Below, piece after piece: positions 17,148 through 52,899 of a DNA stretch of 64,000 bases. This DNA is from Ditylenchus dipsaci (Eukaryota; Nematoda; Chromadorea; Rhabditida; Anguinidae). Position 1 is the stretch's first letter; every line of letters starts with the position of its first letter. Made by a program: the position numbers and the translations under genes. The notes below the pieces were generated by a model, which was not told the DNA's origin, did no database searches, and saw only the letters and a list, made by a program, of their open reading frames with translations. The stretch covers positions 1-64,000 of the forward strand of contig SADC01000159.1 in assembly GCA_004194705.1 (NCBI GenBank). The letters are read 5' to 3'.

Positions 17148-17358
17148 GTGAACGTTTCAGCACTTTTTTCAAATGAAAAAAAGTGCTAAAAGGCAAAAAG
17201 TGATTTTTTTGAAAAAAATTGCCTTGGTCCCCCTGTGGTTTTGAAACCACCAATAAGCAAGGTTTCAAAACAACAGGGAGGACCAAGGCAATTTTTTTCA
17301 AAAAAATCACTTTTTGCCTTTCAGCACTTTTTTTCATTTGAAAAAAGTGCTGAACGTC
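17148..17358. mobile_element. foldback element of the TTGCCTTGGTCCCC family
   Basis: Outer arms 'gaacgtttcagcactttttt' and 'tgaaaaaagtgctgaacgtc' enclose inner arms 'ttgccttggtccccctgtgg' and 'aggaccaaggcaa'. The whole 210 bp folds back on itself. It is just upstream of the giant gene's first candidate exons. Confidence 0.65.
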
Positions 17359-17690: not shown

Positions 17691-18050
17691 GCAAATCGTG
17701 ATCCATATTCCGATACCCTCACCGCCATGGAAGACAGGCCGGATTTGAACAAAGAGGTTGTTTTGGTGCTAATAAAAACAAATTTTTACGATAATTATTA
17801 TTGCAATTTGAGAAAAAGTTTGGAGAGCACATTGAAGAGCTAGATGAGAACATCTTGAACACAAAAATGCATGTGTGGAGACAGAGCAAATGTTGGGATA
17901 TGTTGGACAGATAGATGAGGTAGTCAGGCAATGATATATTTGTCAATCAATTAATCTTTAGGCCAGGCGGAATGCTTTGATATACCAACTCCAAAAACAA
18001 CGCTTGGATTATGCAAGATTTCATGTTCAGAAGGTGGCTCTGCTCAAACA
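17691..18050 (+). CDS. giant gene: N-terminal coiled-coil exons
   Basis: Three exons separated by 56-bp and 42-bp introns, all in phase 0. The first contains an internal ATG (17727) and ends PDLNKE. The second has KKFGEHIEELDENILNTKM. The third has ARRNALIYQLQKQRLDYARF then HVQKVALLKQ, and continues directly into ISDQDNHF of the next exon. The segment is strongly helical. A one-base loss near 17890 (caaatg) is needed to stay in frame. The last helix has the spacing of hydrophobic, Gln and His/Tyr residues seen in the final helix of BAR domains, but this is too short to assign. The true start codon may be upstream. Confidence 0.65.
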
Positions 18051-21000
18051 GGTCAGTTTTGTTAGCTGAAGTTTGCAATAAAGGTTGCTGCAATAAAGGT
18101 GGACTCTACCTAGGGTCCTCCCACTTTTTTATCTTCTTTTTGGAGTTCTGCGCGAATTTAGGTTGCAGGTTCGACTCCACCTAGGGTGCTCCCACTTTTT
18201 CATCTTCTTTTTGGAGTTCTGCGTAATTTAGGCTGCAGGTTCGACTCCACCTAGTGCATGACCACTTTTTTACCGGTTTTTTTTAAAGTTATCGCGATTA
18301 GCACTATAAGGCTAATAATTATAAAATGTAGCGTTTTTTCATTAAGATTAATTGCTGAAATTTATACAACTGTTGGAATTTATTTTTTAAATGTAAAAAA
18401 AGCCGAAGTTTTTAAGTTTTCATGAAAAATATAAAAAAATCTTCATTTGTTTGTTGAAAATCATCAATCTTAGGAATAAAAAAATGAACACATTGAAATT
18501 TAAAAGTTGTCGGACTCTAGGTGAAGTCGAACTTGAGGGATGTTTCTAAAAATGCAAATTTTTCTCAAATAGTTTGTCTATTTCTGAAATTTAATCAGCA
18601 CTCACAATTTCAGATATCAGACCAGGACAATCACTTCAACTCCCAACTTCTCAGTCACTCCCCCACCAACACACCAGTTCCAGCTACACCCAAAAGTCCT
18701 CCCAAGTATATCCCGCCAACACTACCACCCACAAGACATCCAGCTACTCGGTCAAAGTCCGCAGAAGCAGTGATCCATCCAACAATCCTTCTAACGACCA
18801 TCTACCCCAGCCAGACCCTTTCACTGATCCCCCATCAGAAATAGTGTCTACTACAAGCCGGTATACCACAGCATCCACCATTTGTGACACTCTAAGCCAT
18901 GCTCTGGCCTTTTTCACTTCTAAAGAAGGTCGGACCAGCCCGTTTGACCACCTGGAAGACACCAATACAAGCTCGAAAGTGGAGGAGATAATACTGCTAG
19001 GCCAAGGTTTTGAAGGCGCCTCAGCCAGCTCCACCCTAGAGCGCAAAGAGAGAATAGTGGATCAGAGGAAGGTGGTGGATGAGCAAGTCCATTTTGTGCA
19101 CGAACACATCAGAAGCTACAGGTTGGAGACTGTGCTTAATCTGGCTGGTTCGGAGATATTAGACCAGATCAAGGTTGGCGAACAGAGAACAGCGGAGGAG
19201 AAAACAAAGTATTTAGAGGATACGAGGGAGGATGGAGAGGTTAATAGGAATAGACCGACTAGATGGGAAGACCAACCAGTCATGTTCCAGAAGGATGCGG
19301 AGTGGAGTAGGACTACTCCAGTAAAGGAAAGAGCAGTTCAGGAAGGGATACAGGGACTTCAGGGATCTGGTCAGAGATTAGTGGATCAGCCAGCAGATTT
19401 GACTACAGCTTTCAAATATCAAGAAGATCAGTGTGTCGACCAGCAGCTATCCAACCAAAGAGGCCCAATAGTCCATACAGAAAGCATATCTACTCCGGTG
19501 AGGGAAAAGGCTGTACAGCAGGGATGGAGGTTCAGGATTCCAGTCAGAAATCACCGGAGCAGCCAGAATATTTGACTACATTTTCACCAGGTCTGGAAGG
19601 CCAGGGTATTGACCAGCAAGTATCCGACCAAGGAGCAGCAATAATTCCCAAAGAAAACTTACCTACTCCGGTTGAGGAAAGGGTGTCCAGGAGGGTTTGC
19701 AGGTTTGGGGATCTGATATGCCAGCAGATTTTACTAGACCCCCCACAGGCCAAGAAGATGAAAGTGTCGACCAGCAGCTATCCAGCCAAAAAACTTCATT
19801 GGACCAAACTGAAAACTTGGTCAAAGGTCTTGAAAACTATGGGAGGAAGGAGAGATACCCAGGCATGCAACTAGTGGATCAGCTGGAACCAGCATATTCT
19901 TCTAGTTCAAATCCAAGTGACATGGATCAGAGCAGCAGACAGCAACTTTTTGGTCAAAATCCACACTTGGACGAACTGCAGCACTCCGCAAAACCAATAG
20001 AAGGTCAAACTGAGGAAGAAATCAGGGCAATGTATTACCAAAGAGGGTTGGCGGAAGAGATCAAAAACCTTTCGTCGGCAGGCTCTACTGGATTTCCCAC
20101 AGATAAGGCAGACCAAAAAATTCAACAACAGCTGGTCAACGAAGAATTAGCAGTGCTCTTACCAGAAAAATTGTATGAGGAGCTAGAAGATGCTCAGAAG
20201 GAGCACCGCCATCTAAGCAGGCAGCCCTCGGCAGATTCTACTGAGTTTCTTACAGGTCAAGACCAACCACCCTGCCGACAAGATCATTTTGAAAAGGGCC
20301 AACAACTTGAAAAAGCAGTAGAAATTCAACAAAGTGAACCAGCAATATCTGGGGTGCCAGATTATAAACCTAGATCAGAGTCCATCCTAAGCCTGGGTTC
20401 AGCCACATCCATGGCTTCTAGTGATGGCACTGTAGTAACTGTCATAGAACATCCAGTTTTGCACCCTGAAAAGCAGTTTGACGGCAGCATTGCCGATGAT
20501 TCCCTCCCGTTTGAACATGAGCAAAACCAGGAGACCTAACTACTCAGGAAACCACCCAGGTGATCCACCTGGATAATGAAATAGACAAGGCACCACTATC
20601 TGCAGTTCAGAGGTTTATTTGACCAAAATTGAGAAGCCTATGGTTAAAGAAGGCGATGAAGTGCTACAAGAAGTTCAGCTTGGAAGACATGAAATATCTG
20701 AAAAACCGGAGAAAGACGTTACAGTGGAATTTACAATAGAAGAAAGGAGCCTGGAAAAAAACTCAGACATGGAATGTGAGCCTATAGTTCAGCCTGAACA
20801 CCTTTTACCAGTGGATAGTAGTCAAGATCAGCCCGATGCATTCGCGCTAGAGCAGAAGTCTTTGGAATCATGGTCAACTGCTGAGCTAGGAAATCAAGGT
20901 ACTTTTCGGGGCATAACACATTAGAAAATCATTTCCATAGTTAGATCGAGAGACCATACTTGTATATCGCAATGAGAACTTAGAAAATTAAAAGGCGCGT

Positions 21001-24000
21001 GGGAAACTTTTTTACTCTAAAACTTTTTGAAGTATGTCATGTCCGATATTCCAAAATAAAAAACATATAATTATATAAGTGGTCCAGGTCTTATCTGATC
21101 ATATCTTATGAATACGTTACAAATGATAGAAAAATAGTTTCGGAACAAAAAAAAGTGTCCTGCGTATAAGTATAAATAAATATAATTTCAAGCTCGCGTA
21201 ATTTTCGACAACCATTCATGGACTAACTAAACCGTTTTCTCCTACAAAATAATTGATATAGCGAAAAAAACTGTCACACTATGTGCAATGAACAAAGAAA
21301 AAAAATTTGCAATGAGACTTGAAATTTTCTAGATACTTTTAAGACCATAAAGAGGAGTAAGCACTTTTTCGGGCTATCCATCTCTTTTTACCTCATCATT
21401 TTTCTCTCTCTTCGCCGACAATATTAAAATTTCATACACTAAACCGACCATGGCGAACATTTTTTATATAGTTTTTGAAATCACATCAAAAAGACAGCTC
21501 GGGTTGTTCCCTGGTAAGCCTAATTGCCAGCCTAAAAATTATTGGGGAATTTAAAACAGAGTAGCTCCCTCTTGTGTATCTATATTGAAATTCACGCGAA
21601 TTTTAGGAACTCGAAACTGATTAAATTTAAATTATAAGAGGCCGTGAGAGATTAATTGGTTGATATTGTTAAAATCCCTGAATCCACATACCGTATTGTT
21701 TCTACTAATTAGCCCTGACTAATTATTCTCGAGCCTCCTGATAGAAAGATGAGAGTTAATTCAGCTAATTCTTTTAAAAAATATTAAAAATTATGACGCT
21801 ACTGGCTTATACCCCCCCCCCCAAAAAGCTACTTTCTTATACCCCCCCCCCCCCCAAAAATCGGACCTACTGTCATATACCCCCCCCCCCCAAAAACCGA
21901 CTTTTTTGGGAGTGTCTAAAAACCGTTTTTATGCAATAATTTGCCATAAAGGGACCAGAAAAGCAGTTTAAAAGGGATTATGGGCTGTATTGGGAGGAAG
22001 GGAATAATACAGGGGCCACTTTTTTTTAGCTGCTTTACCATGTTTTCAACTCGGCCGTGGCAAAAATAGACTCTATATGCATTTTATGATCAAGTGTACT
22101 CCTCGGAATCATGTCTAAGGTAAGTGCGTGCGCGCATCTCTAACTCTCAAGCCCCCTGTGCCCCTTCGGGGGCGCAGGGGCTTGGAGTTGAGATGCGCAC
22201 ACCCACATACCTTAGACACAAATCACTCGAAAGCGACTCTGGATGCATGAAAAAACATGCATACCAGAGTTATTTATGCGGTAGGCCCCAGTATTCAAAA
22301 CTACGTTCAACATCTTGGATTTTACGACCGAAAAGGGTTTCCCCTCTTCAGGCCTGGGCTACGAGCCAGAGGCTCAGCCGTCCAAAAGCCGTCCAAAACA
22401 ACAACGATCAGGATCCACCGGCTGATCGGTCCGATCATTTCGAGTAGTTATACTTTTACGTGCACCACAAGTGGCTGGGTTTGAAAGTGACTTCAACGCT
22501 AAGAGAATTAATACTCTTTGGTACTTATAGGCACTATAGAAGTGGCCCTGTTTTGTCCCTTCCCCTCCAATACAGCCCATAATCCCTTTTAAACTGCTTT
22601 TCTGGTCCCTTTATGGCAAAATTATTGCATAAAAATGGTTTTTAGACACTCCAAAAAAGTCGGTTTTTGGGGGGGGGGGGTATATGACAGTAGGTCCGAT
22701 TTTTGGGGGGGGGGGTATAAGAAAGTAGCTTTTTTGGGGGGGGGTATAAGCCAGTAGCGCCAAAATTATTTTAAAAATGCCTCAGTTGCTCAGATATCAC
22801 CAAATTTAAAGACTATTTGTCAAAATTCAATTGATATGATTCAATTGATATGTAGCTATGACCACAGCAACTAAGGTAATTTTAAAAATTCAGTCGAATT
22901 ATTATAATGTTTTTGCCCACTGACAATTCTCAGAAAAAACCCGGTTTGGTTTTGCAAAATTTTGAAAATCAAAAAGGGTGATTCAAAAAATTTAAAATTA
23001 CGGCAAAATTTTGGTAGCTCTATAAAGACAATAATTTTTGAAAAATTTTAAGATTTCGACGAGACAGAAGAGGCAGATGGTGCAGTCCCATGGCAGATTT
23101 CAGCAGTTACAGAGCCAGAAGTACCTGAGGCAGTCACAAGACTATTGGAGTTACCAAGACAAGCTGACAAGGCTGAAGAGTCACAGGAGTCATCAGACCC
23201 ATCTAGTAGTAGCAGGATTAAGAGAATGGCTAAAGAATTGGATGAGAAGGTGCTCTCTGAAGGCTCTCAACCAGAGCAATCTTTCAAACATCCAGTAGAG
23301 TCAGAAAGTACGGCAAAAACTAGGAAATTGGCTGAAAAGTTCCAGCAAGCTGCTCTAGAACACCAAATACAACCCGGACCAGAGGAAGCTAAATCTACAG
23401 AAGAAAGTAGCAAAATCAAGAAAATGGCTGGACGATTTGAAGAAATTGCTGACAGTCAAGTGTATGAAGTAATGTCAAGGGACAAAGCAGTGGACCAGTA
23501 TGAGTTGAAATCGCCTATTTATCAAGAATTGTCTCAACAGCAAAATGTCCCTTTGTTCAAAGAAGCCATCTCAGAACTGCCCGCTGAATCACTAATGACT
23601 GAACAAACTGGCTCCAAGGGTCTAGAAAAACCTGGTGCTACAGATATTTCAACTACTACTGTTCACGAGAGAACCCCTGCTGGTCAAGATCCAACTTGGC
23701 AAACCCAAATACTAGAGTCAGAGCAAGGAATACCTATTACAAAAATTCCAGAACATTTGACTGACCAAACCAGCTTGAAAGATCCAGCTGAAGACATATT
23801 TCGTGCCACAATATCGACTCCAGATCTAAAGTTAGACTCTGACCAGTCCACAACCATCATTGAACAGGTGGAGATTACGCAGCAAGTAGAGGAGTTGCCT
23901 CATCAAGAAATACCACACACCTCTACTCAGCTCCATAGAAAACTAGAAAATGAGACGCTGGAGATCTGCAAACCAGAAATTCACCTTAAAGGTGGACAAG

Positions 24001-27000
24001 CAAAATTGGTGGAGTCATTTGGCGAGCAAGAAGTAGAAAAATCCTCTCCTCCTCACAGTACATCCAATCTAGTTCTTCAGCAGGATATCCCAGACGACCA
24101 TAAACTGGATCTGGAGCTACAAGCCATGGAGTCACATGAGAAAGTAGAAGAACTGTGCCAGTCCGAAGATCTGCCTCAGCAACCTCTACTAGTTAGCTCT
24201 TCTGCATCAGCTGGCATACAAGAAGGCAGGGTTAAAAAAATGGTGGAGAAACAGCAAGAACCACATGCACAAGAACCATTTGGTTCAACCAAGCGAGGGA
24301 CTGAAAACCCAGGAAAAATCAAGCAGATGACTGAGAAGTTGGAGAAACAGCCTACTGGAGAGGTAAAGCCAATTGATTCCACGAAAAACAGAGAAGGAGA
24401 AAAAATCAGGAAGATGGCTGGAAGATTTGAAGAAATTTCTGCTGGTCAAGCATGTGAAATGTTGGCCACGGACAAGGAGCTCAGAAATTTGCCGCTGGAT
24501 ATTTCCGAAGATCCACAAATAGAGGTTAGCCAACCTAGGTTGACTACTTTAGAGATGACCCCTGTTTTGCAAGAAGAAGGTGTGGAGTCACATCACGGTA
24601 TGCCGCTATCAGAAGTGCCAGAAGGCTTGGCTGAGCGATTAGAAGTGGAGGCTGGAAACACTTACCATTCTCATGATGCAGAGGAAGATCCCAAAAAGCC
24701 AACAAGCAGTAGCAGAGACCAAGACAAACTTTTCCAGCTGCACTCAGAAAAGCCAGACATGCAATTAATTGGAATATATGACGAAGAAGAGATCAGTCAG
24801 GAATATGCGCAAGAACAAGTTGATCCATTAGAACAAAATATGCAAAACAAAGTCAAGGAAAGGGCTCAGCAGCTAGTGGAGTTGTCCACACCAGAATTAA
24901 AACAAAAATCGCCCGACGAGCCCAAGGAGGAGAGTGGAAAAATCAAGAAAATGGCTGGACGATTTGAAGAAATAGCTGACAGTCAGGTGTATGAAGTATT
25001 GTCAAGGGTCAAAGAGGTCAAACAGTTGCCGCTGGAAATCTCTACATCAGAACTAGAACTAGATTCTGAACTTGCTCGATCCGAAGACAAACATCCACCA
25101 GAGAAACTAGCTCTAAAGTCAGGTGAGACACCTAATAACCAACAATCTAGCCATCCAGCCACAATTATATATGATCAGCAGGCAAAACGCGAGAACCAGG
25201 CAGGTGTAGCTCTAGTGGCAGATGGGCCCGACAATCAAGCACTTCACTCACAACAAGCACCAGAGATGCCAGAACCAATGCTTTTGGCTAGAATGCCACA
25301 TGAAGACTTGGCTGTCCAGTTGGAGGAGAAATATAAAACACAGGGACCAAGGATGACTATTACCAGTGCCTATGTAGAAATCGAGAAAAGTCCTCAACAA
25401 TTTGAAAGCTCCGGTAAAGATTTACCAGATCAACCGCAACAAGACAGCTCAGTATCCGAAAGCTGTCAAGAAAAAAGCAAGATCAATCAGCTGGTTCAGC
25501 AAGCAACTACTGGATCAGATGCCAACAAACCAGTTGATCCACCTAAACAAGAAATCAAGAGCCCGAGTAGAATTGCTGAAATTTGGAGGAACAGCAAGAA
25601 ATTAAGCCAATCGATTTCAAAGAGACCAAAGAAACAACATACAGAAGCAGTGAGATGGCTGGGAGGTCAGAGAAAATTGATGATGATCAGCAACCTGCAG
25701 CCCTAAATAGGCAGAGAGATCTCAAAAACTTGCAATTGGATGTGCAGACACCAGAATTAATGGGATTTGAATATGGTGAAAATCTAGCTGCAATCCATGG
25801 TGAGTCATATGGAAGGTCACCTAATAGCCAGCCTGTTGAAATAATGAGTCAGGTTGACTTACGTTCTGAAGTTACCAATCTAGAACAGCTAGCAGTAAAA
25901 CCTTTACACCAAGAACTGAAAGAAGCCCAAAATCCAGTTGAATCAAGCCCAGATTGGATAACTCAACTAGTAATGCAAGGCATACCTGATACATCAAGCC
26001 AGGCTGATCCTCAAAAAGACTAGATGGTCACTCCACAGGCACACAACCTCAACCCACTGATCCAAAGACCAAAGAACTGGCTGTCACATCTGGAAAAGTC
26101 GATTCCATGCAGCCCGATGAGATTCCACCCAAACAAAAAGAGCTGAAACCACAGACTTCTGAGGTCTCTAGACCAGGCGTAGATGGCCAACCTCCTAGAC
26201 TTGCAGACCAACAACACACCCAAGCCCAGAAAGAACCGTCTGGTCAGCCAGCAGTTTCTTCAGAACCAGATAGCGCCTTATCCGTTCAAAAAAGGCAGGA
26301 GCAAATCAGAATTCTGGAAGAGCAACGCCTCCAAATGGTCTATGAAGTGGAGGAGAGCACCCATCGCAAAAGAGTCAAGCGAAAACCCACTCAAGAAAAA
26401 ACCAGTAGCCAGTCAGATGGTGAACACAGCTGTTCTGAGGGCGATTACACCGATGAAGATGAGGTGCAGGAAGAACAGCCCACAGAAATGCCATTGCTGT
26501 CCACCATCCAAGTCATCCAAAGGCAAATATCAAGACAGGAGGAGGTCAGAAAACGAAGTGAATCTCAATCTGAAGACGCTAGGTCCAAAGCTCTAGTGAA
26601 GTTACCCTACCAGGCGGATTTGGAGCACAGGCCTTTGAGTGCTGTGCAAGCATTTCAGGCTAAGAACAGAGAAAATGATTCACAGCAAGAAGATGCCCTA
26701 CAAGCCTCGGACACAGGAAAAATCAGGAAAATGGCCGAGCTGGTGGAGCAACACCAAGCTACTTCTCAGCCTTTCGAGTCAGCGCTGAGAGAAAAGAAGG
26801 AATTACTACAGAAACAAGAAAGAGAGCCGGGAAAAATCAAGGGAATGGCTGTAAAGTTTGAAGAAATCGCTGGGAGTCAGCAATATGAGGTATTAGCCAG
26901 GGACAGAGAGTTGAAGAAACTGCCTATGGAGTTTGCAAAAGCTAAGAATGCACAGTCAGGGCATGTGGCTGAGGAGCATTTTGAAGGAGAAATTCAAGTC

Positions 27001-42000: not shown

Positions 42001-45000
42001 TATTGTCAAAGTCACTCAGTCAAAACGTTATTGTAAGGATTCAGAATCTGCAGTAAAAAATAGTCATACTAAAAAAATTGGTCGGACCCTAGGCGGAGTC
42101 GAACTCGCAGCATTTTTCATATATTTACCTGACTGCATTTCCTCACCTAAATTTACGCACATTTTTATTATTATTTTCAGCAAAAAGCATAAACCCCATG
42201 TTTATTAGGTCATAGATCATTGCTTCAGATTATATTTATTATCCTTCTTCCCTCCAGGCTCCCCAATTTTCTTCTATTTAACTGGCTTCTGTTTACTCAT
42301 TAAACTAATGAAAAAATATTTCCTTCTGTTTAATTTCTGTTTTTCCCACAAACGATCCATAAATTGTCAAAAAGTACATCTCTCAAAGCAAAATGTCCAG
42401 CAAGACTCCAGAGGCCTCAATTAGACCATCTATTGACCAGTGGTCTATCTGAAGCCCGGAAGAATTAATTTCTTGGCTAAGCAGTAGTGGTGTCTCCTAG
42501 TATATAGCTGATGCTGTCTGGGTTGAAGAGTGTGCATAAATTTGGGGAGGAAGAGGCAGTAGGGGTGCCCCATAAATTGGCCCTTTGCTGCCTTCTTTTG
42601 TTTCGGCTCATTGTATATATATACATTCTGCAAGGGGGGTATATAGATATATTTGGGAAAAAGCAGCTATTACTCCATTTAGATGGCCTTTTGGCACTTC
42701 TTATTAGGTTTTTTTGAGAGATTCACAATTATTGATCTAAGTTGGACATTATTATGTAAATAAGCAATCAATAAGAGTCATACATATAGGAGATTCAATG
42801 AAGTAGGTAGGGGCTGTAAATTTTAACTGCAAACCTCTAAAAGGAGTGGTGAACTTGTGTGACTAGCAGTTTCATGTACGTATGGCGCACCGGATAACCG
42901 TTAGTGCATGTTGACCCCAAAAACGGTTGGCAGGTTCGAGCCGACCTGGTGGCAAGCTAGTTATCTTTCTTTGCTTGGGGTAATATCTAGGATTAATTTG
43001 GGTCACTGATTTCGAATGTAGCCTCAAAAAGTCTAATAGCTCCTAGATATTTGTCAAGCAAGTTGAAATAACTAGCGTGCCACCAGGTGGGGTCACCCTG
43101 CACTCCATTTCAAGCCAAAAAAGACTATATAACACTACAGGAAATTTATGGCCACACAAGTTGGCCGCTCCCTTTAAGGGGGGGGGGGTGACACTTGGGG
43201 GAGGAGAAATGGGTTTGGCAACCTAATGAAAAATCCATTGACGGGTTGCAAAAACATTTTAAATATAAAATTATTTATGTGATTTTATGATGGGTTTCAC
43301 TACATTATTCGACAATATTTAGTGAAACCCATCATAAAATCAAATAAATAATTTTATATTAAAAATGTTTTTCACGCCGTCAATGGATTTTTCATAAGGT
43401 GCCAAACCATTTCTCAACCCCCCAAGTGTCACCCCCCCCTTTAAGTTTTTATGCTTGAGATGCCATACTTTCGATCGTATTCCATTCAGAAACTCAACAA
43501 AAAATATTTCAAATACCCAAAAAGTCATGTACTTCCATAAATTTCATGATGGGGTTGGGCATATGTGAGACACTAATAGTTGGTCATTTTACAAAAAAAA
43601 AGCTAAGAATTGGCTTTTCAACCAGTTTAGGTAATGGAATTGTATTTTTTTTGTTAGGAGCTGGGAACTTCTCCCACCTGGTTTTCTAGCACTACAGAGG
43701 ATCCTTGTATTTTTGTAGAAAACAAAGAACCCGGTACCGGGTCTCGTGCAACTCGTCGGTTCGATTCCTGCTAGTAGCATGCACCTTTTCATAACTTTCT
43801 ATTTATTAATTTTTTTGTCGTTGGTTCCAATTCCTTTGCTGGCACAAACTTTTTTCTTAAATTTTATTGATTACGGAGGGTGGTCGGTCAAATTTCGATG
43901 GTGGCTCACACCTTTCCGCCTACTTTTATCGATTTTTTGTTTTTGAACACTTATTGAAAAACCTGCCTGCTTGCTCATATCTTGCCTGCTGTTCTTTAAA
44001 CTCCCCTCTTTGGCACTTTGAATGGCTGGCAGCGGCACTTTGTCATTTTTCTATATTTATTAAATCCATGTGTTGCTTATTTGAATGCTCTAGCAAATAA
44101 TTTATGGTTTTAGGGCATTTTCAAAATATCTAAATAGAAGATGAAACATTGCGTGTTCATTTTTGTTGTCTTTTCTAAAATAAAAACTAAACTTTGGGGG
44201 TTTGAGACACAGCGGAAGGGGTGATGTCTGAATATCAAATATCTGTTTATTTATCTTTTTCTACTCAAATGTCAAATTGGTTTTGGGTTTGTTCACCAAA
44301 AATTAAGGAACTCAAAGTGGATTCTTTTAAATTTTTGAAAATCCTAATTTTGAGGTGTTTTTTTTGAAAAAAAAAACTTAATTTAATATTATTATCTCCA
44401 ATCGAGTTTTTAACATGAAATGAGGTCACTTCACAGGCCGAAGTTACTTTCTGACCTTCGAAAATTGTTCAGATCACAAAAAAGGGCTTTTGAAATGTAA
44501 AGGTTCTTGTATCCAACTTTTTTAAAGTCGGAAAGCAAAACTCAAAAAAGTAGGCCCAGTTAAAATAAGAAAGCAGATCAGAGCCATCAATATTAAATTT
44601 GACGCTTGAGCAGAAAACCCAATCCATATGCTTTTGATTTTTCGACATAGGTGCGTTTAGGCGATTTTCGGACACTTTTTTTTGATTCGCGCCTTTTTGG
44701 CGTTGTGTTTTCTGGTGATTTTCTTGAACTTTTTTCTTTTTTTGAAAACGCAGGTGAAGCCTTGGGCTCAGTAGGCTACCACACTTTAGAACAGGCTGAA
44801 AAAACAGTGTTTCCCAATAGCGAAAAAACTTTTTGCGAATTTAGAAAATGCCCGAAAATTGCCTAAACTCCTACGCACTGGTACAACCATATGTATTTTC
44901 TGTAAAAGTCTATTGTATGCAAAAAACTTTCTATAATGAAAATTTGTTTAGAAATCAGCCTATCAAATCAGGAGCCCACGCTCCTCAAGTGTTTGTAGAA

Positions 45001-48000
45001 CAAGCACTCCTTGAAGCATCCAAAACATCTCTAAAGCCTGTAAAGCACACTACCAGAAAAAGACCAGCTGTATTCAGTCAAGAGAAGAAAGGATCAGCTT
45101 CAGACTCTGCCCCCGACGTAGAAGAAAGTCCCTACCTTCGAAGAGCTAGTAAATTGTTCAAAAGGCTTGATCAAGAGTTGTCAAGTCAAGAGATCAGCCT
45201 GCTCAACTAGGACTTGCTCCAAGATACACTGTTAGGTAATTTTAGGCCTTTCTAGTATTTTAGAATTTTTTTTATCAATAAAAGTAATTTATTAATAAAA
45301 AAAATCACTGCTTCAAAAATTTTTCTGACCTTTTCCAAATTCCAATTTTTTGAAAAGTCGGAACCATTAAGCAGAATGGCTCTATATGTGTTCGCACCCC
45401 TCCCGCCTCGATCCCTACTGTTTTTTTTTAATTTTTAAAAATTTACCTTGGTACCACCTGTTTTTTTATGAATTTTCTATAACCCAAAGAAATTCTCAAA
45501 AATTATTTATTAGTTTTAACATTGTTTGTCAGGCAAAATAATAAGACCAGGAGATATTGTGTTTTTTTGGCTTCATCGTAATTAGACAACAAAAATCTTG
45601 TTATGTGCGAAAAATCATATTGGTGGCGGAATTATGTGAAAAGGCTCCCAAATAAGGCAGCGGATATAAAAGTGTAACAAAAAGAAAAAAAAAATTGCAG
45701 AAAAACAATAGAGTAACTAATTCAAATTTTGAAAAATTCTACAAAAAGATGGGGAGGGGACCAAGGCAACTTTTTGGTAGGGTTTCGAACACATATAGAG
45801 CCAGCAGAAATTTAGAAAATAATTGGTTTATGTGATTTTCAAGCCTCAATTGCATGTCTCTGCACCCATGGATTTTGAAAATTTTTTTTTCAGATTTCTG
45901 AGTAAATTTATGCAGCTGAATGTTGTCGAAAAAAGTCTGCACAAATAAGATTCAATAATAGGTATTGGCATTTTATGAGTGATCCTGTCGCTGTTTTTTT
46001 TTTTGTCATTTTTAGGCTTATGCAAAAGTTGACGGAGCAGTTTCGGTATACGCCCCCCAGTCAAGTTCGGTATACAGCCCCCAGTTTGCCTTGGTCCCCC
46101 AAGCTGATTTTTAAAAAAAAAAATTCCGAATTTTTTTCAACTTTAACCCAATAAAAAAACAGCGTTCAAAAATTTCGAATTTTTTTTAAATCAGCTTGGG
46201 GACCAAGGCAAACTGGGGGCTGTATACCGAACTTGACTGGAGGGTATATACCGAAACTTAGCCAAAGTTGACTACCTTATGTTAAGACGGGCTTGAAAAT
46301 GTGTCTAAGATATGTTCAAGTCCGTTTTATAACATATGCTGGCCAACCCTTGTCTAACAGTGTATAAGCCTGAAAAATCACAAAAACCAACAGGCTGGAA
46401 TAAGGAAAAAATGGCATCAATTGTCATATTAGGACGGTATTTTTTTTGCAAAAAATATCAAAAATTTAAAAAAAACTGTGGCGAACTGACCTATTCCTTA
46501 TAATTCAAGCATAATCAGTTATACGCCTTCAGATTTGCTCGTCCCGCCACACTGACTATAGTAGGCAGTCGACAACACAATTTACCAATGCCAGAACTCT
46601 TTGACGGCCTACAACAGGCCAATGGAGGCCACCATGGAGGTGTCTATCTGAATGGTCAGGAAGAGACCGATCACTCCAAGAAATGGGACCCCACTGGACT
46701 ACTGGCCAATAAACTTTACAAAATTGACTACAACCCTTTGGTGGAGAAGAGGAATAGATACCGTACAATGGAGGGACACCTGGAAGTGCCAAATGAGGAG
46801 AAAAATCTGGTGCCTGAGATTGAAAAGGACTGGAAAAAACTCTACTTCAGAGTCAAAGATGGTCGATTTCAGTGGTTTGCGGTGAGTCAATTTTGATCAA
46901 CTATGAGGTTGTGAGATGTACATTGCGGGTGTTTCAGAAATTAATTTAAATTGTGTATTCAGAATCACTGCGCCGATGAGCACCCAATAGAGGATGTATT
47001 GCTCACTGGCACTGCTATTACTCCAAACAAAGACGAGTGGACATTGGAGGTAGGCGAAAGTTTGGAGATTTCTCCGTGTTAACGAGGCTTTTCGTACTTT
47101 CATGTAAAAACAAATATTTTGCAAAAAAAAATTTTGAGACACCGCTGAGGGCGCTATTGGACAATCTGTTTTTTATTAGTCTTTTTAAATGCCTTGGTGC
47201 TCCCAGTCAGATTTTTTTAAAAATGGTGTATTTAAAATGGCCGAAAATAATCGTTCTGGATACGCTGTGAGAAAGGATGCAAAACCATACACGAGGAGCC
47301 GATTTTGACGCTAAACTCCATCTCCGGATCATAACTCAGTCAAAACCTAATTCTTTTGTCAAATCTACAGCAAAACCTTGATATAGCGGCCGCTAACAAG
47401 TTCGTTACTGACTAGGGTCGGACACATTTGTTCGTGCTATATTCTGAAGCTTTTTACTTATTTTGCTTGAATATTCTGGTCTCAATTCAGATTTTGCCAA
47501 AAAATTTTCAGAAACCTAATATCTTTAACTATAGAAAATGTAAACCACGAATTATGATTCTCTTGTTTGAAAAAATGATCACTGATGTTCTAGCGGGAAA
47601 AGGGTTGGGTTTAAAAAAAACAATCGGAAAATTAGCTTTAGTAAAAAGTTTCAAAAGTAGGGTTAAAAAATGCAGACTCTGCTCATGAACTTTACATAAA
47701 GAAATTTACGTCACAATTTTATTTTACCAAAACCGAATTTCAGGTAAAAGGAGGCAAAGAAAATGCCAACATTACTGTGCGCACCCCCTCCAATCTGTTC
47801 GAAAAATGGCACCAAGCCTTGCTGAGTCACTCCAACTCTAAGCTAATAGATGCCTATGTTCAGCCAGTCTACCCTCCAGTCCCTCACTACACTCAGGTAC
47901 ATTTTTTAAATAATTTCCAAACTTGCTGACTATTTGATTTCAATTTCAGAAAGTGGTGCTCATTGAACTAGGCACCTGTTCCATCCGAGCTGGACTGCTG

Positions 48001-51000
48001 ACCAATAAACCCTCGTTGCCCCAGACATTTTTCCCAGCCATCGGCTGTGTCACAGACGCAGGCGAAGTGTTTGTGGCATTGACGCCTTCAAACCCGAGAT
48101 TCGGTGCCAGGACGTCTGGAATCTCCGATCCAAGCGGCAGACCATCAAAACCTTGTGGAACGGTATAAACTCAACAAACAGGTTTTAGAAGCTTGTTTGC
48201 GCAAGGTACTGGCTGACTTAAGGGTGGATCCTGCAAATTATAAGGTGGGTCGAAAATTTCTCAAATGATTTTTTGGATGTTGAAATCAGGGTTTCAGGTC
48301 CTGTTGTCCATACCTCAGAACATACCTACAGTGTTCATTTGTGATCTGTTGAAGACTTTATTGCATGAACTCAGATTCAAGGTGTGTTATCTTGGAGTTC
48401 CCATCTGTACTTTATTTAAAGATTTAGACTTTATTTGGCACCTTAAATCTTTAGAAGTTTTCACATTTTACGTCAAAATCTTTATTTTTGGCGCTCAAAT
48501 CTCAACAAACATTGGATAAAATGGCACTTTTTGACGAAAAATGGTCAATTTGTACTTTATTCGCCAAATGTACTTTATTTTAAAATTTTGAGATGAGAAC
48601 TCTGCTTATTTCCCATCAAATACTCAACAAAAATGTTGTTGAAAATATTTATTTTATGAATTGACCTGGTACCCGTCTTTTGAAATATTCCATCGGCGGC
48701 GAGCATGCCCCTTAAGAACAACACAAAACAACTTTAGACCACTCTCAACCACTAATAAACTACTCTCAACCAGTGTTTCGGGTGGTTTTGGGTGGCTCTG
48801 AATAGTTAAGTATGGTATTCTGAGAAATTTAGCCGATCGCAGTGAGATTCATATGCGCGCCATTAATTTTTTTCAAAAAAGTTTTCCCCGCCCCTTTATT
48901 AAACCTCCAAAAAACCAACTTTCAGTGGCCTTTGGCCTTTTTAACGTGGGATTCTGAGCGGTCCAAGTCGTTCTCAGACTAGAAAATTGGTACTCCCGCA
49001 AAATTTTGGCGATTTGGACCATAATATTTGTCCGATCAGTTCAGATCTATCTGATCTGCACTGATCTGATCTAGATCGATCTAATCTTTGCCCATCTCTG
49101 GATTATGACTAATCTTTCTTTTACCAAATCCTCCAAACTGTGTTTTGAATTTTTTTTGAGCTCCCGCGGTCGTTATTAGGATGAAAAAAGTTTTTTAGAG
49201 TGTCGAAAAAAACATTTTTGGAAATAAATTTGATTAAAAGTTTGACTTTTTGCATTGATCGGTAAAATTTACGAAGTCAGTAATAGTTGTTTCTGTTGTA
49301 GGCAGCGAGCATTGCAAGACAACCTTCTTTGATCCTCTACTCCTACGATGTGACCTCAGGAGTTGTGGTGGACATTGGTGATCGCCTCAATATTGTGCCT
49401 GTTATTGATGGTATTTACTTTTTCTCTCTAAAAGTCAAGAATACACTGAATTACATTTTTAGAATACATAGTAGAGAATGCAATTATTTCTTTGCCATTC
49501 GGAGCTCAACAAATTAGGGACAGTCTCAAGAAGAAATTGAGTGAAAGCAACAATGGCATAGTCTCCTTCAATTCTGCTGTAGAACAGATATTCTTGAGAC
49601 ACATAGCTGAACAGGTTGGTCAAGAGTATTGCTTATCGGTTCAGTTAACCTTTTTCGCCTTTTTTAATCGAAAAACCTTTATTTTTGAAAAAATAGATCC
49701 AAACACTATCGTACTATTATCCCCTATTTCCATCCATATCCACCTTTTTCAGTCATGCTACGTGGCTACTGACTATGAAGAAGAGAGCAAGAAGTCTAGC
49801 AGCAATTCAGAAGTGGAAGTCAACCTCGATAAATTCAACATTGGACCTGGTATGGAGAACAAATTCACGGTTAGTTCCACTTTTTATCGAAGTTTATTAA
49901 ATCTCATAACTGCCAAATTGAAGTAATTTATTTTCATTATAAATAGGGCTGCAAAACTACTCGAGTAGGATGATTTCGAGCATAGGCTCCAGCATTTGCT
50001 CATTTTCGAGCATATTTTGTTTATCAGATAACCCTTAATTGTGGCTCATAGTTAACTGTACAGTTACACTGCGCTTTTATGACTTACCGTAGAAGCTCTA
50101 CCAGTCGTCCATGAGGAATTTATTTTCCATCCATGATTTTTTCGAAATTATCAATCAAAAATGGCCTTGACTCTGATATCCTAGTCAAAAAAATGAGGGC
50201 TAGGGGATTTATAGAGGTATAAGGTATAGGAAAAAAATCTGCTTTTTTCACTTAAAAAATTTCTCGTGATGTGACAATTTCAACTTTGAATTTAAAGCCA
50301 TTTTAAATATTTTTTTAAATTTTTTAAAGCCAAGCATATGGTTAAGGTTTACCGATGTGCTCGAGCTTATACGCTCAAGAAGGCTAGGATACATTTGGCA
50401 AAAAAAAATTAGCAAACGTAGGTTTTGTCAAAACGAAACTTGCAAAATCAAAAAAAGGCAAAACGAAAGTTGTCAAAAAATTGCCTTGGTCCCCGCTGTT
50501 GTCCGAAAATGTCTAAAAATAGAACAAAAATGTGTAAGAATTCGGACAACAGGGAGACCAAGGCAATTTTTGCCAACTTTCGTTTTGCCAAATTTCGTTT
50601 TTGCCAAATGTATCCTAGCCCTCAAGAATATGCTATTTTAACCACCCTAAGCCTAAACAAGACTTTAATACGTTTACAAATGAAATTCCAGGTTGACTCA
50701 GCCCGTTTCCACGCCACCGAAGGACTATTCAAACCCAAACGCTGGAACCTGGAAATGAAAGGTATCCACCAGCTGATTCACGACGCCATTCAGCAATCCC
50801 CAATAGATAGTAGACGCACCCTGTACAGAAACATTTACTTGACCGGAGGCACCTCTCTGCTGCCTGGTTTGGCCGAAAGACTCGAGACTGAGCTTTGCAA
50901 AGTCGCCCCAACTTCTATTTTTGTTCAGGTTGGTCTAATTTTGAATATTTTTAAAATTAAATTTAAAACAATTTAAAACAATCTTCAGGTCCATGGTAGT

Positions 51001-51129
51001 CCATGGCGCTACCATTCCTCCTACCTGGGCTCTCAAGTAATCGCCAACTCACTGCAGTTCGAGAACTGCTGCGCCGACTTAAATAATTTAGACGACTATA
51101 TAAAGCAATTGGAGCTGGCCATCAACTAA
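17691..51129 (+). CDS. giant repeat-rich protein with C-terminal PH and actin-like domains (gene model)
   Basis: Exons: 17691-17756, 17813-17919, 17962-18050, 18614-20898, 23053-31666, 31804-32575, 33243-35506, 36363-36737, 39135-39797, 44952-45235, 46533-46881, 46963-47049, 47744-47896, 47950-48244, 48298-48381, 49302-49410, 49463-49614, 49753-49869, 50692-50928, 50989-51129. Phases match at each junction. Total about 5,700 codons. Order: predicted coiled coil; Gln/Ser/Pro-rich stretch with about 60-residue repeats; long acidic region with KIKKMAGRFEEIA-type repeats; a conserved-looking segment (35100-35506); linker; PH domain; actin fold. No signal peptide or membrane segment, so cytoplasmic. 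The domains suggest a cytoskeletal scaffold; that is inference. More than 20 single-base frame breaks interrupt the exons. The alternative is two genes, with the split before 46533; the matching phase and absence of a promoter-sized gap argue against it. Confidence 0.7.
18101..18535. repeat. B-box foldback with internal ~70-bp tandem repeats
   Basis: A unit of about 70 bp, starting GACTCYACCTAGGGT and ending GCAGGTTC, is repeated two to three times (18101-18275). The inverted end at 18509-18535 reads 'ggactctaggtgaagtcgaac'. The repeated GGTTCGACTCC matches a tRNA gene B box (GGTTCGANTCC). It lies in the intron between 18050 and 18614. A relative is at 41791-42110. Confidence 0.6.
18614..20898 (+). 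CDS. giant gene: exon with Gln/Ser-rich repeats
   Basis: Starts in phase 0 (ISDQDNHF), then a Pro/Thr/Ser-rich stretch (TPVPATPKSPPKYIPPTLPP). From about 19040 it is charged. Three tandem units of about 60 residues follow at 19340-19840; each has a 'DQQ(L/V)S(N/D/S)Q' core, a following 'TPV.E' segment and a spacer. The tail ends AELGNQ, the same as at 27140, and splices at 20899 in phase 1. Frame changes near 18770, 19530, 19690, 20530 and 20610 break the exon. An LSAVQ-F motif near 20595 recurs at 26635 and 27675. Confidence 0.75.
20899..23052. other. intron of the giant gene hosting a large foldback element
   Basis: Donor gtactt at 20899; acceptor after 'aaaattttaag' at 23052. Phase 1 on both sides produces an Asp codon. 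Apart from the element at 21796-22760 the intron is AT-rich, with a degenerate 'accgtattgtttctactaat' repeat end near 21692. Confidence 0.6.
21796..22760. mobile_element. 965-bp foldback element with poly-C/poly-G termini
   Basis: Terminal inverted repeats of about 230 bp begin 'gctactggcttata' and carry three runs of 9-14 C (left: near 21811, 21841 and 21880) or G (right: near 22669, 22706 and 22736). The next shared block contains 'ccataaagggaccagaaaag'. A central palindrome at 22110-22215 contains 'cttcgggggcgcaggggctt' and yields 100-codon ORFs that are shadows. Related cores are at 52167-52313, 54367-54943 and 60090-60270. Superfamily unknown; no transposase. Confidence 0.75.
23053..31666 (+). 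CDS. giant gene: 8.6-kb exon with KIKKMAGRFEEIA repeats
   Basis: One very long exon, AT to G phase 1 at both ends, acidic and rich in Gln, Glu, Lys and Ser. The core repeat, K-I-x-x-M-A-x-[RK]-F-E-E-I, is often followed by 'Y-E-V-L-[SA]-R-D-[KR]-E-[LV]-[RK]-x-L-P-[LM]-[ED]'. Strong copies start near 23408, 24396, 24924, 26827, 27903, 28309, 29425, 30053 and 30583. Weaker 'KIKQMTEKLEKQP' copies are at 24315 and 29337. An LS-x-[IV]-Q-[VA]-F motif recurs (26635, 27675). No globular domain is recognised. Frame breaks near 25605, 26015, 28070, 28619 and 29453 split the open frame. The exon ends with a Ser-rich acidic stretch and the donor gtaagc at 31667. The repeats may be short binding sites for one partner; that is inference. 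Confidence 0.85.
23480..24560. repeat. higher-order coding duplication, copy A
   Basis: Matches 28490-29560. Shared order: a 'Y-Q-E-L' segment, 'ELPAESLMTEQ', 'LEKPG', 'ISTTTVHE', 'ESEQGIP', 'DSDQST' or its relative, 'SEDL', the MTEKLEKQP repeat, 'GEVKPIDS', then a KMAGRFEE repeat. It remains open in frame, unlike the partner copy. Confidence 0.7.
26943..27430. repeat. tandem coding repeat of about 240 bp
   Basis: Two adjacent units each begin NAQSGHVAE and contain a 'KV.....TRGQ' segment, an 'EVEPEV' or 'KVEPEV' segment, and 'D.V.K' with acidic filler. They are diverged at the DNA level, so the duplication is not recent. Confidence 0.65.
28490..29560. repeat. higher-order coding duplication, copy B
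   Basis: Partner of 23480-24560. Two single-base losses relative to copy A break its frame: at 28619 (aagg-tctag against aagggtctag) and at 29453 (agat-tgag against agatttgaa). The flanking block 28070-28410 also matches 24570-25060. Confidence 0.7.
31804..32575 (+). CDS. giant gene: Gln/Pro/Ser-rich exon
   Basis: Acceptor ttccag at 31803; the phase 1 junction with 31666 gives Ala. The translation is low-complexity (SSSDEAFIEHPSS, later NPGTSQDLPASTQANNSPF), with a frame change near 32280. It then becomes charged (VKEVKKEASPQQFVRVVKET) and ends in phase 0 at gtaatt (32576). Probably disordered. Confidence 0.7.
32576..33242. other. intron of the giant gene
   Basis: AT-rich. It contains a short palindromic set 'aaatagagcccattaaaat...gggctcattt' at 32865-32960, similar in design to the TAAGCGCC family ends. 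No exon. Confidence 0.5.
33243..35506 (+). CDS. giant gene: exon with conserved-looking C-terminal segment
   Basis: Begins in phase 0 with a Gln/Thr/Ser-rich stretch (PKTPSYQQTTQSTQSD). The middle is acidic, with repeated 'S.EP.LLGSQSG' segments (33905 and 34250). The last 130 codons differ: few low-complexity residues, aromatic and hydrophobic positions, DEDWCMPYFLVPKEHELL then IPEWLEAAAEVLLRS, so this may be a folded helical domain. It ends at the donor gtgggt (35507) in phase 1. 34500-35040 has the highest density of frame breaks in the gene, about five in 540 bp. Confidence 0.7.
35534..35960. mobile_element. mariner-like MITE with TA target duplication
   Basis: A palindromic 427-bp element flanked by TA (35532-35533 and 35961-35962). 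Termini are TTAGGTTGTGTAAAAAG and its reverse complement, of the kind found in mariner transposons. Arms of about 125 bp include 'ggggtaaaatgacacgctga'. No transposase. It sits 28 bp into the intron after 35506. Confidence 0.8.
36363..36737 (+). CDS. giant gene: acidic exon
   Basis: Acceptor tcttcag; the phase 1 join with 35506 gives Glu. After a frame change near 36400 it reads SPAQPPTSPTSVKSGIKTKP, then QYLDEDEYMWQEGDAEDWPQ and a run of Glu/Asp. It ends in phase 2 at gtaggc (36738). The Trp-containing acidic stretch could be a short binding motif. Confidence 0.7.
36738..39134. other. 2.4-kb intron of the giant gene, filled by a composite element
   Basis: Phase 2 on both sides. Most of the intron is the repeat at 37083-38788. 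The flanks are AT-rich without exons. Confidence 0.6.
37083..38788. mobile_element. 1.7-kb element with 'attgatccccgcc' terminal arrays
   Basis: The left end has four direct copies of GATTGATCCCCGCC-like units (37083-37137). The right end has four copies of the reverse complement, ggggatcaatcgg (38729-38788). Inside are a foldback at about 37480-37780 (cttggataaa.../...gatccaagtgg), a gatc-rich tract at 37860-38070, and another foldback at 38358-38620 built from the unit 'gactcgctac'. Several nested insertions are likely. Confidence 0.65.
39135..39797 (+). CDS. giant gene: helical charged exon
   Basis: One uninterrupted frame of 220 codons. Starts after 'acttccag' with one base that completes the Lys codon from 36737. 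Contains PEVVLSPAQAEFLLLQRHPK, an Ala/Glu-rich helix (KSAAAEELAEVLARRLQRLS) and an acidic segment (VSEDELSEEDFLEICEDAQL). Ends at gtaagg (39798) in phase 2. Probably coiled coil followed by a disordered acidic tail. Confidence 0.8.
40441..40540 (-). repeat. tRNA-like SINE fragment
   Basis: On the minus strand a B box (AGGTTCGAATCCT, as aggattcgaacct on the plus strand) is preceded by a weak A-box region 'ggtgcacttggac'. The acceptor stem does not pair over seven bases and no clean anticodon arm is visible, so this is tRNA-derived rather than a tRNA gene. Confidence 0.45.
41791..42110. repeat. B-box foldback element, second copy
   Basis: Left arm 'caagttcgactacacctagg' then gtctgaccacttttt; right arm 'ggtcggaccctaggcggagt' then cgaactcgcag. 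Same family as 18101-18535 but without the internal tandem units. Confidence 0.65.
42880..43110. repeat. foldback element with tRNA-like arms (copy 2)
   Basis: Left arm with 'tatggcgcaccggataaccg' and B-box 'ggcaggttcgagccgacctg'; right arm 'cgtgccaccaggtggggtca'. Spacer includes 'ttgggtcactgatttcgaat', related to the spacer at 63470. Same family as 9304-9592. Confidence 0.6.
43171..43445. mobile_element. foldback MITE with CTTTAAGGGGGGG ends
   Basis: Inverted ends 'cctttaagggggg' and 'cccccccctttaag' with arms of about 110 bp, including tgatgggtttcact/agtgaaacccatca at the centre. A diverged copy lies at 62068-62275 inside another element. Confidence 0.7.
44952..45235 (+). CDS. giant gene: linker exon before the PH domain
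   Basis: Phase 2 entry (acceptor tttgtttag) completes the Glu codon from 39797. Reads NQPIKSGAHAPQVFVEQALL, a basic Ser/Lys stretch and SPYLRRASKLFKRLDQELSS. A one-base shift near 45190 leads to QPAQLGLAPRYTV and a split Arg codon at the donor gtaatt (45236). The split codon is completed by the first base of 46533. This junction ties the repeat region to the PH-actin part. Confidence 0.65.
45236..46532. other. intron between linker and PH exons
   Basis: AT-rich, with a 'ggggaccaaggcaac' repeat end near 45756 and the foldback at 46039-46259. No promoter or first exon is evident that would mark a separate gene start. Confidence 0.5.
46039..46259. mobile_element. nested foldback: 'AGTTTCGGTATA' ends around a TTGCCTTGGTCCCC core
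   Basis: Outer arms agtttcggtatacgcccccc and tataccgaaact; second pair gttcggtatacagcccccag/ctgggggctgtataccgaac; then tttgccttggtcccccaagc/gcttggggaccaaggcaaa. The short loop is A/T-rich. Confidence 0.7.
46533..47896 (+). CDS. giant gene: PH domain exons (46533-46881, 46963-47049, 47744-47896)
   Basis: Exon 1 starts FARPATLTIVGSRQ, then MPELFDGLQQANGG and RYRTMEGHLEVP, the usual first strand of a PH domain. It continues DWKKLYFRVKDGRFQWFA (strands 3-4, basic and aromatic). Exon 2 reads NHCADEHPIEDVLLTGTAI. Exon 3 carries NANITVRTPSNLFEKWHQAL, with the invariant Trp in the C-terminal helix. Exon boundaries are phase 0 with good GT/AG sites. PH modules bind phosphoinositides or proteins; the first loop here has only a few basic residues, so lipid binding is not certain. 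The domain runs straight into the actin fold. Confidence 0.85.
47950..51129 (+). CDS. giant gene: actin-like domain exons
   Basis: Nine exons: 47950-48244, 48298-48381, 49302-49410, 49463-49614, 49753-49869, 50692-50928, 50989-51129 plus the frame-shifted parts of the first. Phosphate loop 1 is IELGTCSIRAG (actin DNGSGMCKAG), followed by TFFPAIG (actin FPSIVG). Loop 2 is SGVVVDIGDRLNIVPVIDG (actin DSGDG...TVP), with a Gln at the spacing of actin Gln137. 'SCYVATDYEEE' matches actin LCYVALDFEQE, and 'NIYLTGGTSLLPGLAERL' is the adenosine-binding GGT segment. It ends DDYIKQLELAIN; the actin HRKCF end is absent. The D-loop region is not recognisable. Two one-base losses are inferred near 48078 and 48143. 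Actin-related protein, full fold, subfamily not assignable. Confidence 0.85.
48382..49301. other. intron in the actin-like region
   Basis: Contains a diverged piece of the 12361-12748 repeat family (about 48880-48990) and 'actctcaaccact' direct repeats at 48735-48775. No exon. Confidence 0.5.
49870..50691. other. intron in the actin-like region with a foldback
   Basis: Donor gttagt, acceptor attccag, phase 0. Contains the foldback at 50382-50620. Confidence 0.55.
50382..50620. mobile_element. foldback element with TTGCCTTGGTCCCC core
   Basis: Outer arms ggctaggatacatttggca and tgccaaatgtatcctagcc; inner arms 'attgccttggtccccgctgt' and 'caacagggagaccaaggcaa'. The arms are interrupted by A-rich filler. 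Confidence 0.7.
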
Positions 51130-51386: not shown

Positions 51387-51392
51387 AATAAA
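51387..51392 (+). promoter_or_regulatory. polyadenylation signal AATAAA of the giant gene
   Basis: First clear AATAAA after the stop at 51127-51129, about 260 bp downstream in an AT-rich 3' UTR. Confidence 0.5.
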
Positions 51393-52338: not shown

Positions 52339-52344
52339 TTTATT
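52339..52344 (-). promoter_or_regulatory. minus-strand polyadenylation signal
   Basis: TTTATT on the plus strand (AATAAA on the minus), 23 bp past the minus-strand stop at 52367-52369. Confidence 0.6.
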
Positions 52345-52366: not shown

Positions 52367-52899
52367 TTACAAATACAATACAAATATGGTGATTTTGTGG
52401 TTCTTCGGATGCTCCCTTCTTGGACATTGGCTGGTTTTTTCTGCTGATTCGAGAGCGGCTTGGACTCTTCGGCTAGGACTTGAGACGACTGGAGGACTAG
52501 TTGACTGCTTGACTGAAGGAGGTGACTGCTGGGCGAAAAGCGGACTTTTTGGCTGGCTGGCCGATGACTGGATGGACGGCGACCACGGCTTCTTTTCGGC
52601 TTCTGGAGCATCCTTCACCACTTCACGTTTTAGGTCCGCCGACCCCTTTATAGTCTCGGTGTGGTGTCCATCTTTAACCCAGAGGAATGTGGATCCCATA
52701 AGAGAGGATGTGCCATCGATCTGAAAAAAATTGAACTTGCCTTGCAGGGAGTTGCTGCACTCGTACCAAGTTTCTTCAATGTCATTATTGACTCCAGGGA
52801 GTACAGGTGCAATCCTAGTTGCGACCCCTTTCAGGGTAACGGATTTCTGATCATCATCTGACTTAATTCCAAGGTGCTGCCCGGAGCCTTGGATTCCAT
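52367..52899 (-). CDS. single-exon minus-strand gene, folded N-terminus and Ser/Pro/Gln tail
   Basis: ATG at 52899-52897 (MESKAPGS). After a one-base shift near 52875 the frame stays open to the stop at 52367. It reads SDDDQKSVTLKGVATRIAPV, IEETWYECSNSLQGKFNFFQ, then SLMGSTFLWVKDGHHTETIK and a charged stretch. From about 52585 it is low-complexity (SASQPKSPLFAQQSPPSVKQ). Total about 177 codons. An AATAAA follows on the same strand. No signal peptide or membrane segment; family not recognised. The lack of introns would also fit a retroposed copy. The plus-strand ORF at 52386-52724 is a shadow. Confidence 0.65.

What the first reader, a model, noticed from the sequence alone, without database searches (positions are those of the whole stretch)
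17691..51129. One gene appears to join a ~5,000-residue repeat tail to a PH domain and a complete actin fold
Seen: exons from the repeat region to the actin C-terminus lie on one strand with no intervening promoter-sized gap. Each junction I could define keeps phase, including the key one: 45235 ends with two bases of a codon and 46533 starts with the third. Known: PH and actin folds are separately well defined, and actin-related proteins are usually about 400 residues. Inference: a giant cytoplasmic protein with an actin-related head and a long repetitive tail would be an unusual cytoskeletal scaffold, and I know of no characterised equivalent.
Basis: partly seen in the sequence, partly recalled or inferred. 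Interest (0 to 1): 0.88.

Follow-up and report, generated by a model that had tools for sequence, protein, structure and literature searches.

The report
Actin-like gene beside repeat-rich giant
A roundworm carries a conserved but unstudied actin-like protein with a PH-type front domain, directly downstream of a very long repetitive coding stretch whose repeats look like known actin-filament-gripping motifs; whether the two form one giant protein is undecided.

Summary
The window is nematode DNA. Both halves of the finding are real; the join is not shown. (1) Exons 46588-51129 encode a PH-actin-related protein of an old animal family: 70 homologues, 61% identity to Panagrellus, starfish and sea cucumber relatives carrying both domains; 29 of 70 are 500-600 residues. 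(2) Upstream, about 15 kb of plus-strand coding sequence (~5,000 codons) holds nine copies of a 35-residue unit. Five comparisons of unit-bearing copies give dN/dS 0.20-0.43. (3) The key junction fails as read: exon 44959-45235 is mainly coding in a frame that meets TAG at 45208-45210, followed by AATAAA at 45277 and 45294. Only another frame, open over the last 21 codons, joins 46533 in phase. The assembly breaks frame about once per kb, so the stop may be false. A conserved start Met at 46588 suggests a short, tail-less product anyway. I put a joined giant isoform at 0.4. Likely role: a multivalent F-actin binder beside, or fused to, a non-polymerising actin-like PH protein.

The parts
17728..18051 (+). 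possible 5' exons of the upstream coding region (17728-17757, ~17809-17918 with a frame break, 17962-18051); uncertain
   Evidence: open frames with GT/AG; resemblance to the Plectus N-terminal domain did not survive unbiased scans
18614..20536 (+). tail coding region, first block (two frame breaks, base-loss type)
   Evidence: ORFs and codon score 239.5 (the codon model was trained partly on this region)
23052..31686 (+). tail coding region, main block with the repeats (five frame breaks, all base-loss type)
   Evidence: codon score 1459.8 (same caveat); repeats
23412..30687 (+). nine copies of the 35-residue unit at 23412, 24402, 24939, 26833, 27904, 28314, 29449 (cut by a frame break), 30055, 30592 (profile E 4.5e-07 to 2.8e-24); one degenerate copy at 25649 (E 3e-4)
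   Evidence: seven of the nine built the profile; SFM-type core
31797..32590 (+). tail coding region, third block (one frame break)
   Evidence: codon score 77.9
33243..35506 (+). tail coding region, fourth block, six or seven frame breaks by penalty; donor after 35506
   Evidence: sequence
   Evidence: codon score f1 +47.1 over 36450-36738
39135..39783 (+). coding exon (216 codons open); donor after 39783 is weak; TAA at 39799-39801 if it is not used
   Evidence: (f1 +88.3)
44959..45235 (+). exon next to the disputed join; main frame stops at TAG 45208-45210; in-phase frame open only from 45171
45277..45299 (+). two AATAAA hexamers, 67 and 84 bases after the TAG: possible polyadenylation signals of the upstream gene
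46533..46587 (+). leader between a splice acceptor and the conserved ATG; no coding signal in the joined frame; could be a trans-splice or cis-splice acceptor
46588..51129 (+). PH-actin-related gene: 46588-46881, 46963-47049, 47744-47896 (PH part), 47950-48244 (two frame breaks), 48298-48381, 49302-49410, 49463-49614, 49753-49869, 50692-50928, 50989-51129 (actin part)
51387..51392 (+). AATAAA 258 bases after the stop of the PH-actin gene

Best explanation
A nematode locus with two coding units on one strand. The downstream unit makes a PH-actin-related protein of about 556 residues from the start codon at 46588 (a short form common in nematodes). Its actin-like part probably does not polymerise, because much of the loop that packs neighbouring subunits in filaments and the catalytic His are missing; it more likely caps, docks or scaffolds. 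The upstream unit makes a ~5,000-residue, probably disordered protein that carries nine 35-residue units whose core fits the Lifeact/ITPKA-type F-actin-binding motif. It would lie along actin filaments by many weak contacts and tie them together. The upstream unit is either a separate neighbouring gene (somewhat more likely) or the N-terminal extension of a long isoform of the PH-actin gene. Shown: the coding nature of both units, the family of the PH-actin part, selection on the repeat copies between 23.4 and 30.2 kb, the motif match. Inferred: F-actin binding, loss of polymerisation, disorder, the function of the whole.
Against: No binding data. Pfam finds no PH domain in the window protein at E<=1. 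The motif core is short and could be an ordinary amphipathic helix; the seven strict matches in units descend from one unit by duplication. No relative of the tail was found in the one search made, which covered only proteins of about 3,103-9,872 residues. Comparison F, outside the units, has dN/dS 0.66 and is no lower than one of its shifted frames (0.57). Frame breaks in both halves leave the exact proteins unsure. Selection was not tested for the tail outside 23.4-30.2 kb.
Confidence: 0.5

Rival explanations
1. One giant gene: the repeat region is the greatly lengthened N-terminal extension of the PH-actin protein, giving a polypeptide of more than 5,500 residues with many F-actin-binding units and a pseudo-actin head.
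For: Same strand; splice sites 36737/39135 and 39783/44959 fit in phase as read; a good donor at 45235 fits 46533 in frame f0, which scores slightly better than f1 over the exon's last 75 bases (11.1 against 8.3); frame breaks elsewhere are mostly base losses (16 of 19 at cost 10, 14 of 17 at cost 14), and the shift needed here is of that kind; at least 29 of 70 family members have extensions of more than 70 residues, and P0007 and P0011 lie on contigs so short (4,116 and 2,567 bases) that they are probably spliced RNA.
Against: TAG at 45208-45210 in the frame with the stronger coding score over most of the exon, then AATAAA at 45277 and 45294; 35506/36363 also needs a frame break; the donor after 39783 is weak; the leader 46533-46587 has no coding signal; no significant similarity between upstream exons and relatives' extensions; the N-terminal domain of Plectus and echinoderm members was not found upstream by unbiased scans. 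The break that the codon model places at 45193 is no evidence, because the model was made to read through to 45235.
Confidence: 0.4
2. Two genes: the repeat gene ends at 45210 (or already at 36741 or 39801), and the PH-actin gene is transcribed or trans-spliced separately from the acceptor at 46533.
For: Stop plus two AATAAA hexamers; start Met shared by nematode orthologues; a 55-base leader behind a TTCAG acceptor looks like a nematode trans-splice site (established knowledge, not tested); 29 of 70 homologues are 500-600 residues.
Against: AATAAA occurs 61 times on this strand in 64 kb, about once per kb; the 45235 donor is strong and in phase with 46533 in one frame; long forms exist in relatives.
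Confidence: 0.55
3. The tail is a decayed or chance open region, or the whole locus is a pseudogene.
For: 17 to 19 frame breaks in 16.7 kb by the codon model.
Against: Breaks are biased to base losses, as expected from an error-prone long-read assembly; unit-bearing repeat copies show low dN/dS in the reading frame and not in shifted frames; the PH-actin exons keep their splice sites.
Confidence: 0.05

Closest known systems
Uncharacterised PH-actin family (UniRef 'PH domain-containing protein'/'Actin'; nematodes, Acanthaster planci, Holothuria leucospilota)
   Same: Same domain order; window protein 61% identical to Panagrellus redivivus (P0002) and to P0001
   Different: The 70 members found are 311-970 residues, but the search admitted only lengths of about 306-975, so giants could not appear
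SFM proteins: Lifeact/Abp140, ITPKA, SHROOM3, USP54; SFM repeats in PLEKHG3, SORBS1/2, SSH2 (PMC13364712, passages)
   Same: Core [I/V]xxMxxxFE at the motif positions P1, P4, P8, P9
   Different: Nine units in one coding region; that paper's searches in Nematoda found no motif-positive orthologues of its own set; binding not tested here
Xin repeat proteins (XIRP1/2; seen in a search listing only)
   Same: Works like: many short F-actin-binding repeats on one long protein
   Different: Repeat sequence differs as far as recalled; not compared here, no membership claimed
Filactin of Dictyostelium (PMC2441452, passages read)
   Same: Actin domain behind a long N-terminal extension
   Different: [quoted passage not shown] the terms 'PH domain' and 'pleckstrin' do not occur in that paper's main text

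Membership tests
Actin superfamily (PF00022) | Significant match to the actin profile over the fold | tested here: met
   E=3e-42, residues 179-539 of the typed protein; 45 of 45 aligned family members match
Conventional, filament-forming actin | Full D-loop and catalytic His161 | tested here: not met
   In the family profile against solved actins seven residues of the D-loop stretch are missing and a gap stands opposite His161. Residue names and roles are recalled
PH domain | Pfam PF00169 match in the window protein | tested here: not met
   No PH hit at E<=1
PH domain | Seven strands capped by a C-terminal helix in an orthologue; PF00169 match in relatives | tested here: met
   P0005 model: strands in 56-135, helix 138-152; 17 of 45 relatives match. 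The structure searches were filled by actins and did not test this part
PH domain binding phosphoinositides | K-Xn-(K/R)-X-R signature (recalled) | tested here: inconclusive
   By eye: present in the non-nematode members read (P0052, P0053, P0055, P0056, P0059, P0063), absent from the window and the nematode members read; lipid binding not testable here
SFM (short F-actin-binding motif) | VxxLxxxFE with close substitutes at P1, P4, P8, P9 | tested here: met
   10 strict matches, 7 in units, against 1.16 expected; constant columns coincide
SFM (short F-actin-binding motif) | Binding to actin filaments | not testable with these tools
   Needs co-sedimentation or cell localisation
Canonical Arp subfamilies (Arp1-Arp11) | Grouping with one subfamily in a tree | not tested
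   The tree holds only the PH-actin family

The most novel reading that the evidence does not exclude
A single polypeptide of more than 5,500 residues carries at one end an actin-like pseudo-subunit with a PH domain and along its length nine or more Lifeact-type F-actin-gripping units: a self-contained cytoskeletal scaffold that combines an actin mimic with a multivalent actin-filament tether, grown from a ~900-residue ancestral PH-actin protein by expansion of its linker in one nematode lineage.
Probability: 0.33. Interest if true: 0.85.

Novelty: new variant of a known kind. Interest (0 to 1): 0.55.

Why it matters
The PH-actin family is found in nematodes and echinoderms, and I found no paper on a characterised member in three library searches. 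A nematode repeat protein with nine Lifeact-type units would show this recently defined motif as a long array in a phylum where the paper that defined it reports none for its own set, and would offer natural multivalent F-actin binders to test. If fused, it would be a new kind of actin-related scaffold.

Tried and rejected
N-terminal domain of Plectus/starfish members at 17.8-18.05 kb: a hand-built peptide aligned without gaps to Plectus (5 of 2,000 shuffles as good), but not to five others (557 to 1,913 of 2,000). A six-sequence profile did not pick it out (17795-17911 at E 18). A spliced, frame-tolerant scan did not single it out: 27 there, against 20-28 for 15 shuffles at one setting and 21-33 for 15 at another; one search was too permissive. 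The positive control, the PH part of P0005, scored 278.6 at its place. I do not use this as evidence of joining.

DFRxS motif shared by longer nematode members: the 44959 exon scored E=7.1 with one profile and is not among the rows shown for the other. Rejected. Longer members do resemble each other there: 6 of 28 pairs with at most 6 of 200 shuffles as good, among them P0003-P0006 (1), P0003-P0007 (4) and P0006-P0007 (1). Ten upstream pieces against 29 extensions, 290 comparisons: best 0 of 300 shuffles (with P0063, a distant protein), then 1 of 300 twice (P0011, P0008), about what that many tests give; not counted.

Homologue searches: none for the repeats among 978 scored candidates of about 3,103-9,872 residues; the Plectus N-terminal domain found only itself. 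Proteins under about 3,103 residues were never searched for the tail, so absence of relatives is not shown. Pfam, NCBIfam and PDB scans of tail pieces gave only weak hits, the Pfam and NCBIfam ones below their cut-offs, e.g. MMS22L_C E 0.005 and KIX_2 E 0.023 at one stretch. A single-sequence model of 35035-35505 was too poor to use (pLDDT 36.5). Rfam none at gathering scores, tRNA none.

Controls that cut against me: dN/dS comparison F is 0.66 and one shifted frame there is 0.57; comparison E has saturated dS and gives no ratio; the 0.48 comparison is nearly all spacer. Seven of nine units built the profile that counts them. The codon model was trained partly on the regions it scores, was made to read each region to its end, and chose a base gain in exon 47950-48244, where the frames of the conserved peptides imply two losses. 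For that I lowered the joined-gene odds from 0.45 to 0.4 and raised two genes from 0.5 to 0.55.

Full report
What the window is. The best named protein relatives are nematode, and the window's PH-actin protein groups (99/96) with P0044, P0001 and a set holding plant-parasitic Globodera, Heterodera and Meloidogyne in a 33-row tree. The window's own genome could not be searched: the tool was busy all seven times.

The actin part is unlikely to make filaments. In the family profile seven residues of the D-loop stretch are missing and a gap stands opposite His161; the Gln at the catalytic position is nearly invariant in the family (Q305 of P0005). Residue names and roles are recalled. The PH part of the nematode members I read lacks the basic signature that the non-nematode members read still have (by eye), so lipid binding is uncertain.

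The upstream half is real coding sequence. The regions scored sum to 16,749 nt, of which 15,026 nt (about 5,000 codons) lie upstream of the PH-actin exons. The frame breaks 19 times at one penalty (16 base losses) and 17 at another (14 base losses). That bias fits an error-prone long-read assembly better than decay. Two breaks fall inside the conserved actin exon 47950-48244.

Selection on the repeats. Segments of the tail are duplicated, the largest about 1.08 kb at 71% identity. dN/dS is 0.30, 0.20, 0.26, 0.43 and 0.20 in five unit-bearing comparisons; a sixth had saturated dS; one comparison that is nearly all spacer gave 0.48 and one outside the units 0.66. In shifted frames the ratio is 0.62-1.9 for the first seven and 0.57-0.89 for the last. 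So the region 23.4-30.2 kb is translated, or was until recently; elsewhere the tail rests on open frames and codon scores.

What the repeats look like. A profile of the 35-residue unit finds nine copies with E of 4.5e-07 or better, all on the plus strand between 23412 and 30687, and one weak copy at 25649 (seven of the nine built the profile). In eight copies aligned, M at column 5, F at 9, E at 11 and I at 12 never change, column 2 is I or V in 8 of 8 and column 10 is E in 7 of 8. Columns 2, 5, 9 and 10 are the P1, P4, P8 and P9 of the short F-actin-binding motif VxxLxxxFE described from ITPKA and Lifeact (PMC13364712; I read the abstract, sections 8 and 11 and found passages). Strict matches number 10 in 5,614 residues of partly overlapping tail pieces, 7 of them in units, against a shuffled mean of 1.16 and a maximum of 6 in 1,000; because the units descend from one another, seven of these are one event amplified. 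That paper reports affinities of 2-12 uM for SFMs, mentions SFM repeats in PLEKHG3, SORBS1/2 and SSH2, and found no motif-positive nematode orthologues of its own proteins.

The join. 35506 to 39135 is out of phase. 39783/44959 fits in phase with a weak donor. At 45235-46533, two bases plus one fit only in frame f0, open from 45171. The exon's main frame, f1, is stronger over 44959-45160 (+21.0 against -1.5) and meets TAG at 45208-45210; over the last 75 bases f0 is slightly better, 11.1 against 8.3. AATAAA follows at 45277 and 45294; it occurs 61 times on this strand in 64 kb. The break that the codon model puts at 45193 is no evidence, because the model was made to reach 45235. Other possible ends exist: TAG at 36739-36741 and TAA at 39799-39801.

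Is there a short form? Five family rows start exactly at the residue that aligns with Met 46588, the 18 codons before it show no coding signal (-4.1 and -1.1 bits with two codon tables), and an acceptor lies 55 bases upstream, where nematodes often trans-splice (recalled). Yet long forms exist: at least 29 of 70 have more than 70 residues before the WDP/WNP motif. The upstream exons of the window show no significant likeness to those extensions, and the N-terminal domain of Plectus was not found upstream by unbiased scans, although a hand-built peptide had looked promising.

Weighing (my estimate). A false stop has a prior of perhaps 0.2 in an exon of this length at about one break per kb; AATAAA so close by chance is about as unlikely; the in-phase donor speaks the other way. 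I put the join at 0.4. The mechanism I commit to: the tail is a flexible multivalent F-actin binder; the PH-actin protein is a non-polymerising actin mimic that docks or caps. If they are joined, the tail would deliver the mimic along filaments.

Noticed in passing
whole tail, e.g. 25581, 26015, 28078, 28623, 29453: Reading frames break about once per kb of coding sequence, mostly as base losses, which suggests an uncorrected long-read assembly.
   Followed up: partly
62674-63060 (+): Open frame with a regular, helical-looking protein sequence, probably an exon of another gene; no Pfam hit at E<=1.
   Followed up: partly
52367-52903 (-): 178-residue open frame on the other strand downstream of the PH-actin gene, with an AATAAA on that strand at 52339; only a weak Pfam hit below cut-off.
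   Followed up: partly
about 35590-35660 and 35830-35930: Inverted-repeat arms flanking a spacer just after the donor at 35506, like a small non-autonomous transposon inside the intron (seen by eye).
   Followed up: no
17220-17300, 46090-46230, 50484-50570, 51465: A recurring TGCCTTGGTCC-type stretch, often in inverted pairs, in introns and flanks (seen by eye).
   Followed up: no
35035-35505 (+): Non-repetitive, hydrophobic-rich segment of the tail that may be a folded domain; no usable Pfam, NCBIfam or PDB relative and an unusable single-sequence model.
   Followed up: partly
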